Of a DNA stretch of 64,000 nt, positions 40,232 to 41,265 are shown piece after piece. The translations under genes and the position numbers were made by a program. Positions within the stretch are counted from its first letter, which is position 1. Each line of letters begins with the position of its first letter. The notes below the pieces were generated by a model, which searched no databases, was not told the DNA's origin, and saw only the letters and a list, made by a program, of their open reading frames with translations. Where the stretch lies: contig NZ_JACJFN010000003.1 of assembly GCF_014164785.1 (NCBI RefSeq), forward strand, positions 434,001 through 498,000, in the 5' to 3' direction. This DNA is from Aquipseudomonas guryensis. Lineage in GTDB: Bacteria > Pseudomonadota > Gammaproteobacteria > Pseudomonadales > Pseudomonadaceae.

Positions 40232-40712
40232 CGAAACTCCATGATCGATTGCGTATGGACTCTCACTGCAGGTGCACAGCACCGCGATCCATTTCTTTAT
40301 TGAAGCAGCTATGCGGACGTTGAGGTCGTCTGTTGGCAAAGCCTGACGCAAGCCAAACCGCCCGCCGGCTGCCCAGCATAGCCAGTCGCTCTGCCGGCCA
40401 ATATCCCGATTTCTAAGGAGCCTACTTGGCACAAGCAATACCATAGTAACTGTGCGGATAATATCCGTGCCTCCTGCGACAAGACGCCAACCCACAGAGC
40501 AATCGAATTAATCGATAAAATATCCCCCTTGCAAACTCTCCAAATCCGCCCTGAAAAGCCAGATTAACGACCTGAAAGCCTTATGCAGAGCGGCCTCCGA
40601 GCACTATCACGCTGATCGATATCGACCATCGGCAGCATCAAGTTCTATATCGAATTCTTATCCGTAACATGGGCCCCGTACTCACCTTCCAGCCCGAAAA
40701 CGGAGCCCCAAC
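40232..40712. other. 481-bp spacer between divergent genes
   Basis: Holds the leader and a candidate promoter for the LivK-type protein (minus strand) and the leader of the repeat protein (plus strand, Shine-Dalgarno ACGGAGCCCCAAC). I see no ORF with coding character, no tRNA and no long repeat. Confidence 0.6.
40410..40438 (-). promoter_or_regulatory. Candidate promoter for the LivK-type gene
   Basis: On the minus strand TTGCTT, a 17-base spacer and TAGAAA form fair sigma-70 boxes about 180 bp upstream of the start. Prediction by eye. Confidence 0.35.
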
Positions 40713-41171
40713 ATGAAAAAGCAAATCCTCGCCGCCCTGTTCCTCTCCACCCTCAGCATCAGCGCTTTCAGCTTCGCTGCCGATGGTGCCGACCGCATTG
40801 CTGGCAACCGCATCGCCGCTGACGGCGCCGAGCGTACTGGCAGCAAGCACATCGCCGCTGACGGCGCGGACCGTGCTGGCAGCAACCGCATCGCCGCCGA
40901 TGGTGCCGACCGTACTGCTGGCAACCACATCGCCGCCGACGGCACTGATCGTACTGGCAACAACCGCATCGCCGCCGATGGCGCCGAGCGTACTGGCAGC
41001 AACCGCATCGCTGCCGATGGCGCCGACCGCACTGGTGGCAACCGCATCGCCGCCGACGGTGCCGACCGCACTGGCAGCAACCGCATCGCCGCTGACGGCG
41101 CCGATCGTAATGCTGGCAACCGCATCGCCGCCGACGGTGCCGAGCACAGCGCAGTCGCTCGTATCAGCTGA
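40713..41171 (+). CDS. Secreted protein made of ten 13-residue tandem repeats
   Basis: 152 residues: a 22-residue signal peptide (KKQILAALFLSTLSISAFSFA) followed by exactly ten repeats of 13 residues, with nothing left over. Consensus A-D-G-A-(D/E)-R-T-G-S-N-(R/H)-I-A; units begin at codons 23, 36, 49 and so on. Each unit carries two acids and two bases, so the mature chain is nearly neutral. Only the last unit (ADGAEHSAVARIS) decays. The mature protein has no cysteine or aromatic residue. Similar small Ala/Asp/Arg-rich secreted proteins occur in Pseudomonas, sometimes under the uninformative name phage infection protein; I cannot give a function. Good RBS and a strong terminator make it a complete single-gene unit. 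Confidence 0.85.
   Translation: MKKQILAALFLSTLSISAFSFAADGADRIAGNRIAADGAERTGSKHIAADGADRAGSNRIAADGADRTAGNHIAADGTDRTGNNRIAADGAERTGSNRIAADGADRTGGNRIAADGADRTGSNRIAADGADRNAGNRIAADGAEHSAVARIS
40779..41168 (+). repeat. Ten tandem 39-bp coding repeats
   Basis: Ten in-frame 39-bp units, each encoding one 13-residue repeat. Units differ mostly at third positions (GCC GAT GGT versus GCT GAC GGC), so the protein repeat is kept while the DNA drifts. Because 39 is a multiple of three, several other frames also stay open here; they are shadows. Confidence 0.92.
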
Positions 41172-41233: not shown

Positions 41234-41265
41234 GAAGGCGCCTTTTATGGCGCCTTCGCTTTTTT
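41234..41265 (+). terminator. Intrinsic terminator of the repeat-protein gene
   Basis: GAAGGCGCC-TTTTAT-GGCGCCTTC followed by GCTTTTTT: a perfect 9-bp stem with T-run, 62 bp after the stop codon. Confidence 0.9.

What the first reader, a model, noticed from the sequence alone, without database searches (positions are those of the whole stretch)
40713..41171. Mature secreted protein is exactly ten 13-residue repeats
After a 22-residue signal peptide the chain is 130 residues = 10 x 13, with no unique N- or C-terminal domain. The unit A-D-G-A-(D/E)-R-x-G-x-N-R-I-A keeps Gly, both acids and both arginines in nearly all copies while codons drift, which argues for selection on the protein. The single gene has its own Shine-Dalgarno and a strong terminator. 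It could be a fibrous or solenoid surface layer, an ion- or nucleotide-binding array, or a phage/DNA-interacting factor. No function can be assigned.
Basis: partly seen in the sequence, partly recalled or inferred. Interest (0 to 1): 0.75.

Follow-up and report, generated by a model that had tools for sequence, protein, structure and literature searches.

The report
Exported repeat protein, probably MexT-controlled
This Pseudomonas gene appears to make a small exported protein built only of a repeated 13-residue unit; relatives occur in about half of the Pseudomonadaceae genomes sampled, and its promoter carries a predicted operator of the stress regulator MexT, best known for running a multidrug efflux pump, so it is probably an uncharacterised part of that stress response.

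Summary
In detail: a 22-residue signal peptide, then 130 residues dividing exactly into ten 13-mers (the tenth degenerate), with purifying selection between units (pooled dN/dS 0.25, units 1-9).

The gene belongs to a Pseudomonadaceae family without a Pfam or NCBIfam match: 140 of 149 same-genus genomes, 58 of 119 family genomes, no match outside the family in order and class samples. Unit length (12, 13, 14, 18, 21) and copy number vary, so "ten times 13" is not conserved.

New result: the promoter carries a full match to the MexT operator, starting 107 nt before the start codon. The genome has three exact matches to the pattern; two precede its two repeat genes. It has a mexS-like/mexT-like/mexE locus. 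PA4881 of P. aeruginosa, in print a MexT-controlled tandem repeat protein of unknown function, appears to be a relative; that link is inferred.

Best reading: a Sec-exported, possibly disordered repeat chain made in the MexT redox/electrophile stress response. The operator match is strong; activation, export and role are untested.

The parts
40606..40629 (+). predicted MexT operator (nod box) ATCACGCTGATCGATATCGACCAT, full match to ATYA(N7)YGAT(N4)ACYAT
   Evidence: one of three exact matches in the 4.29-Mb genome (0 for the reversed control pattern); ATYA(N7)YGAT is from PMC11432991, ATCA(N)7CGAT from PMC11144800; the ACYAT extension is recalled and seen in the aligned promoters
40640..40646 (+). 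AAGTTCT element near the -35 position, conserved in the family
   Evidence: conserved block across family promoters; position
40664..40670 (+). conserved GTAACAT, presumed -10 element
   Evidence: transcription start not mapped
40702..40707 (+). Shine-Dalgarno-like GGAGCC
40713..41171 (+). gene for the exported repeat protein, 152 aa
   Evidence: matches at E <= 0.001 in 140 of 149 same-genus genomes, the own one included
40713..40778 (+). signal peptide, 22 residues (by inspection)
   Evidence: similar N-termini in relatives
40779..41168 (+). mature chain: ten 13-residue units, the tenth degenerate
41234..41265 (+). terminator-like hairpin and T run
   Evidence: Read from the sequence; no terminator scan was run

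Best explanation
The gene is a MexT-regulon effector of the PA4881 kind. Steps: (1) MexT, a redox- and electrophile-responsive LysR activator, binds the nod box at 40606-40629, whose ATCA(N7)CGAT part is centred about 64 nt before the presumed start of transcription (inferred from an exact operator match; binding and start not tested). (2) The single-gene mRNA ends at its own hairpin (from sequence). (3) The precursor is exported by Sec and the signal peptide removed, leaving a 130-residue chain without Cys, Met, Trp, Phe or Tyr and with net charge -2 (from sequence; export not tested). (4) The chain stays in the periplasm or leaves the cell and works through its many like units, most likely as a disordered, redox-inert protective polyampholyte for envelope components while MexEF-OprN and XenB deal with the offending compounds (guess). 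I hold steps 1-3 at about 0.8 and step 4 at about 0.25.
For: Own genome: exactly three sites match ATYA(N7)YGAT(N4)ACYAT and none match the reversed control; two lie in front of the two repeat genes. Among 71 family genes, 31 have a site with at most one mismatch within 160 nt upstream, against 1 of 806 upstream regions of neighbouring ORFs; in the window-type and MKRQ-type groups it is 31 of 37, the box starting mostly 101-110 nt before the start codon. The pattern also finds genes like known MexT targets: in G156 an exact box before an ArsR-MFS-OYE gene row resembling pyeRM-xenB, described as MexT-regulated in PMC7950407; in the own genome, with one mismatch, the corresponding ArsR gene and the gap between the mexS-like and mexT-like genes. 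Own genome: mexS-like oxidoreductase, 305-aa LysR protein and mexE (NF045904, 762 bits, cut-off 714) in a row. In 119 Pseudomonadaceae genomes, 58 of 75 with this MexT have the family and 0 of 44 without. Literature (passages seen): PA4881 is a tandem repeat protein under MexT (PMC3557286), heads the table of genes lost in a mexT deletion (log2 -6.5; PA4882 -2.0; PMC12607905) and falls in parS and parR mutants (PMC3848899). The own paralogue resembles both the window protein (E 2e-27) and the second repeat gene of G156 (E 1e-19).
Against: No binding or expression data for this gene or species. Groups C and D of the family (28 of 71 genes) have no site better than two mismatches, and the 6 remaining members have three or more, so MexT control is not family-wide. 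The 71 genes come from regions that I chose by hand among the best-scoring rows of a capped list, so they lean towards window-like members; 55 remain at under 80% promoter identity. With one mismatch the contrast to the reversed control is weaker: 17 against 3 sites in the own genome, 15 against 4 in G156, and several lie inside genes. Co-occurrence with MexT is confounded by shared descent, 17 MexT-positive genomes lack the family, and I compared the two sets of 119 by the listed handles only. E-values between repeat proteins are inflated by the repeats. PA4881 mutants were not more sensitive to hydrogen peroxide on disks (data not shown in PMC3557286). PA2206 also binds the PA4881 promoter. 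That the G156 pair corresponds to PA4881/PA4882 rests on gene order and recalled PAO1 numbering. Step 4 has no direct support; low AlphaFold2 confidence is only compatible with disorder.
Confidence: 0.6

Rival explanations
1. A folded repeat protein (beta-solenoid or similar) with a specific binding partner in the periplasm or on the surface; MexT merely sets when it is made.
For: In an alignment of 14 members the Ala and Gly of units 3-7 are invariant, more than a plain linker needs; the aligned AlphaFold2 model shows weak periodic strands.
Against: Mean pLDDT 38.4 with and 37.8 without alignment, all residues under 50, no strands in the second model; unit length shifts between 12, 13 and 14 among relatives, 13 and 14 alternate in the own paralogue, and it is 18 or 21 in G156.
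Confidence: 0.25
2. A precursor of secreted peptides: the repeat chain is cut at each unit to release many copies of a short peptide.
For: Near-identical units directly after a signal peptide, with arginine at fixed places in most units.
Against: No neighbour cluster is shared across locus groups that could serve as a common processing enzyme or exporter (largest cluster 19 of 62 loci; neighbours were not annotated by a family search); the two paralogues of the own genome differ in unit length and sequence.
Confidence: 0.1
3. The site is read by another LysR-type regulator (a MexT paralogue or a PA2206-like protein), not by MexT itself.
For: Many genomes carry further MexT-like proteins at 54-68% identity; PA2206 binds the PA4881 promoter (PMC3557286); groups C and D keep only part of the box.
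Against: The own genome has a single MexT-like gene at E <= 1e-90, the box is exact, and near-matches of the same pattern lie before the pyeR-like gene and between the mexS-like and mexT-like genes of the same genome.
Confidence: 0.15
4. The array is a neutral by-product of replication slippage in a minor gene, without a role of its own.
For: Copy number varies widely.
Against: dN/dS about 0.25 between units, matches in 140 of 149 same-genus genomes, conserved promoter across paralogue groups.
Confidence: 0.05

Closest known systems
PA4881 and PA4882 of Pseudomonas aeruginosa PAO1 (MexT-regulated, uncharacterised)
   Same: Judged from the presumed counterparts in G156: signal-peptide-like start followed by tandem units with the core VA-x-N-G-S; exact MexT box before the first gene. 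PA4881 is described as a tandem repeat protein under MexT (PMC3557286)
   Different: In G156 the units are 18 and 21 residues with a DRLH segment, the genes form a pair beside a bacterioferritin-like gene (52 bits, below the model's cut-off of 125.55) and end in a short unique tail; the window gene has a 13-residue unit, no tail and other neighbours (by inspection a binding-protein gene and a pxpC-like gene). PAO1 itself was not available; the identity is inferred
Hydrophilins and LEA-like repeat proteins (recalled)
   Same: Glycine-rich, low-complexity, repeated, no Cys or Trp, possibly disordered
   Different: Mean hydropathy -0.75 misses the recalled cut-off of -1; exported; no Pfam match
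RTX calcium-binding nonapeptide repeats (recalled)
   Same: Short Gly/Asp-rich tandem units in exported proteins
   Different: 13-residue unit without the GGxGxDxxx motif; N-terminal signal peptide rather than a C-terminal type 1 signal; no Pfam match

Membership tests
PA4881-type MexT-regulated tandem-repeat protein | Signal peptide followed directly or after a short linker by tandem units with an A-x-[DN]-G core | tested here: met
   a 14-member profile finds the P. aeruginosa-like genus g9 with best E 5e-10; paralogue L037 resembles both ends
PA4881-type MexT-regulated tandem-repeat protein | MexT operator upstream | tested here: met
   Exact box at 40606-40629; 3 exact sites in the genome, 0 for the reversed control
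PA4881-type MexT-regulated tandem-repeat protein | mexT present in the genome | tested here: met
   L169:5074-5991, 305 aa, between a MexS-like oxidoreductase and mexE; 83% identical to the gene at the like place in G156. The name rests on position; no MexT-named model was among the NCBIfam hits
PA4881-type MexT-regulated tandem-repeat protein | MexT-dependent expression | not testable with these tools
   Needs RNA or reporter data for this species; seen in print for PA4881 and PA4882
PA4881-type MexT-regulated tandem-repeat protein | Unit of 18 or 21 residues and location beside a bacterioferritin-like gene (as in G156) | tested here: not met
   Unit is 13 residues and the neighbours differ. 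I do not treat these as defining, but they bar calling the gene a PA4881 orthologue
RTX repeat protein | GGxGxDxxx nonapeptide (motif recalled) | tested here: not met
   Period 13 and no such motif; no Pfam match at E <= 1
Hydrophilin | Glycine above 6% and mean hydropathy below -1 (criteria recalled) | tested here: not met
   Gly 15.4% meets it, hydropathy -0.75 does not
Beta-solenoid or ice-binding repeat protein | Confidently predicted solenoid fold | tested here: inconclusive
   Mean pLDDT 38.4 and 37.8, all residues under 50
Phage-related protein | Homologues in phage genomes | tested here: not met
   No match at E <= 1e-5 in 50,697 phage records

The most novel reading that the evidence does not exclude
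The Pseudomonadaceae have evolved a family of exported repeat chains, nearly free of Cys and Trp, as a main protein output of MexT-type stress circuits, with paralogue groups handed over to different MexT-like regulators, so that the 'pump' regulon is really an envelope-protection regulon in which the pump is one arm and the repeat chains are a second, physical arm.
Probability: 0.2. Interest if true: 0.75.

Novelty: new variant of a known kind. Interest (0 to 1): 0.55.

Why it matters
MexT is best known for the MexEF-OprN pump, yet the gene heading the table of those lost in a mexT deletion in one RNA-seq study is PA4881, a tandem repeat protein of unknown role. This window suggests that such proteins belong to a family present in about half of the Pseudomonadaceae genomes sampled (58 of 119), and that in two of its groups the MexT operator can be recognised by sequence alone (31 of 37 genes). 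That makes an open question (what does MexT do besides the pump?) directly testable in harmless laboratory pseudomonads.

Tried and rejected
Searches that gave nothing: Pfam at E <= 1; NCBIfam, two hits far below their cut-offs; phage records. Plasmid records gave two: a P. asturiensis plasmid copy and a Leptospira noguchii stretch. The latter has a 13-residue period too (unit AAEETQRHGSLRI in the frame printed), but in-frame stops stand directly before the array and I saw no start codon or signal peptide; I took it as convergence or chance, which is not proven.

Conserved-neighbour approach: clusters follow locus groups (largest 19 of 62 loci, by inspection a dicarboxylate-transport locus), and among the 40 clusters printed I saw no partner shared by most groups. 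My neighbour ORFs were picked by a crude length and codon-position rule, have over-extended starts and were not annotated. A promoter-core pattern with up to three mismatches found only the two family genes in the own genome, both exact because the pattern was made from them; the reversed control gave three hits.

Structure: two AlphaFold2 jobs, both uninformative; fold searches were therefore not run.

Literature leads not confirmed: C0J56_00080 of P. fluorescens 2P24 and AL066_13550 of P. fluorescens In5, up 32-fold with Rhizoctonia solani, are called 'phage infection protein', but I have no sequence for them. PA14_64530, up 195-fold with colistin and listed in the MexT regulon, may be the PA14 counterpart of PA4881; that is recalled numbering. 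PMC7950407 (passages) reports four MexT-regulated genes whose mutants are hypochlorite-sensitive; PA14_64530 and PA4881 do not occur in its main text. No paper was read whole; I saw listings and the passages named.

Errors corrected: the box scan scored 23 of the 24 positions; one search repeats it with all 24, and its counts are the ones used. The unit tally used a motif that fixes Gly at position 4 and restricts positions 1-7, so it is not used as evidence for conservation there. Rows dropped: three family ORFs without a recognisable signal peptide, and antisense-frame ORFs removed by a string filter without a count.

Full report
WHAT IS THERE. The ORF at 40713-41171 (+) encodes 152 residues: a 22-residue signal peptide (by inspection) and a 130-residue chain that divides into ten 13-residue units, the last degenerate. 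The array is the strongest tandem repeat in the window (score 453 at period 39 and 544 at 117, next best 69). Synonymous change between units exceeds non-synonymous change (pooled dN/dS about 0.25 for units 1-9, 0.28 for all ten). The mature chain holds 17 Arg, 1 Lys, 17 Asp, 3 Glu, 15.4% Gly and no Cys, Met, Trp, Phe or Tyr. Among 69 relatives checked, 1 has Cys, 2 have Trp and 13 have Met. The ORF on the opposite strand (227 aa) is open because the period is a multiple of three; I do not take it as a gene.

THE FAMILY. A protein search of 149 genomes of the same genus, the own one included, finds a match at E <= 0.001 in 140, a few of them barely. A 14-row profile finds it in 58 of 119 genomes of the family, 10 of 19 genera; in 145 genomes drawn from the order the 4 positives are all in the same family; in 274 drawn from the class only the own genome is positive. 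From 60 regions that I chose among the best-scoring rows (a capped list), a plasmid record and the window I kept 71 genes with signal peptide and repeat, after dropping three without a recognisable signal peptide. Spacings between units are mostly 13 (457), then 12 (93) and 14 (10); copies counted by a motif run from 4 to 24. In an alignment of 14 members the Ala and Gly of units 3-7 are invariant. In 137 distinct 13-mer units, position 12 is Arg in 98 and position 13 Val, Leu, Ile or Phe in 130 (positions 1-7 were restricted by the motif used to pick them). Genes occur singly or in local tandem clusters of up to five. Neighbours differ between locus groups. The own genome has a second member with 13- and 14-residue units at C3:559858, which resembles the window protein (E 2e-27; repeats inflate such values).

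THE PROMOTER. Aligning 55 non-redundant upstream regions shows a conserved block: in many of them CGAT-N4-AC-x-AT, then ACTTCT or AAGTTCT, then GNGTARCAT and CCATACC. The first part resembles the nod box of MexT: the literature gives ATYA(N7)YGAT (PMC11432991, passage seen) and ATCA(N)7CGAT from DNase I footprinting (PMC11144800 citing Kim 2019, passage seen). The window site ATCA-CGCTGAT-CGAT-ATCG-ACCAT (40606-40629) fits fully. The own genome holds three exact matches to ATYA(N7)YGAT(N4)ACYAT, none for the reversed control: the window gene, its paralogue, and a site before a small ORF (the ACYAT extension is recalled). Over 71 family genes, 31 have at most one mismatch within 160 nt upstream, against 1 of 806 neighbour ORFs. 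By group: window type 14 of 17, MKRQ type 17 of 20, MKTNKLIFGL type 0 of 15, MKTKLILAL type 0 of 13, others 0 of 6. The two middle groups often keep part of the site near the same place, so a different regulator is possible there. If transcription starts some 6-7 nt after TAACAT, the ATCA(N7)CGAT part is centred near -64, where LysR-type activators usually bind (recalled).

IS IT MEXT? Three checks. First, the same pattern finds genes like known targets: in the P. aeruginosa-like genome G156 an exact box before an ArsR-MFS-OYE gene row, resembling pyeRM-xenB, which PMC7950407 describes as MexT-regulated; in the own genome, with one mismatch, the corresponding ArsR gene and the gap between the mexS-like and mexT-like genes. 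In all, 17 sites of the own genome have at most one mismatch, against 3 for the control, and 15 against 4 in G156; several lie inside genes and are probably chance. A further exact site in G156 precedes an OprD-like porin gene. Second, the own genome has a MexS-like oxidoreductase, a 305-aa LysR protein and an RND operon whose adaptor passes the MexE model (762 bits, cut-off 714) in a row; the name MexT rests on position and on 83% identity to the G156 gene in the like place, as no MexT-named model was among the NCBIfam hits. Third, over 119 genomes the family occurs in 58 of 75 that have this protein at E <= 1e-90 and in 0 of 44 that do not (shared descent inflates this, and the two sets were matched by their listed handles).

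LINK TO THE LITERATURE. G156 has two tandem members, with units of 18 and 21 residues, beside a bacterioferritin-like gene, the first with an exact box. By recalled gene order these are PA4881 and PA4882. PMC3557286 (passages) calls PA4881 a tandem repeat protein under MexT, shows PA2206 binding to its promoter, and reports no increased peroxide sensitivity of the mutant. PMC12607905 (table passages) lists PA4881 first in the mexT deletion (log2 -6.5; PA4882 -2.0). PMC3848899 (table) shows a fall in parS and parR mutants, PMC10848761 (passage) induction by an enynone. A mexT mutant could not grow with hypochlorite (PMC7950407).

MECHANISM. Shown: gene, repeat, family, operator match, regulator-like gene present. 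Inferred: MexT activation, Sec export. Guessed: the chain acts as a disordered, oxidation-poor protective polymer in the envelope. AlphaFold2 gives no fold (mean pLDDT 38.4 and 37.8), which fits disorder but does not prove it. Rivals are a folded binder, a peptide precursor, control by a MexT paralogue, and a neutral array; see the rival list.

NOVELTY. A known but uncharacterised kind (PA4881) with a different unit, seen here as a broad family in which two groups carry a recognisable operator. My ten paper searches (listed in Tried and rejected) did not bring up a description of that family, but the library is partial and two key papers were not held.

Noticed in passing
L132 (G000:C2:481503-481526, minus strand): The third exact MexT box of the own genome precedes a 34-residue signal-peptide-like ORF followed by a 69-residue ORF; a possible further small MexT target.
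   Followed up: partly
Groups C and D of the family, e.g. L043, L045, L057, L068, L072, L076: Promoters keep only part of the nod box, while many genomes hold further MexT-like proteins at 54-68% identity; these groups may answer to MexT paralogues.
   Followed up: no
L063:7588-8508, L074:7391-8323, L088:7722-8693: Members with a different N-terminus and a similar C-terminal tail (SD-x-VAS ... GSYSDQFN), without a close MexT box (three or more mismatches); perhaps a distinct subfamily.
   Followed up: no
L096 (five genes), L054 and L073 (three each), L038, L045, L052, L065 (two each): Local clusters of whole repeat genes, each with its own promoter-like and terminator-like signals.
   Followed up: partly
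L035 (P. asturiensis plasmid pCC1524, 72202-72588): A family member on a plasmid among methyltransferase and glycosyltransferase genes, nearly the same as the copy in L050 apart from one unit.
   Followed up: no
L142 (G156:C1:5232409-5232432): An exact MexT box 160 nt before an OprD-like porin ORF (by inspection) in the P. aeruginosa-like genome.
   Followed up: no
L036 (Leptospira noguchii plasmid p2, 54260-54472): A 39-nt-period array whose reading AAEETQRHGSLRI resembles the family unit, preceded by in-frame stops.
   Followed up: partly
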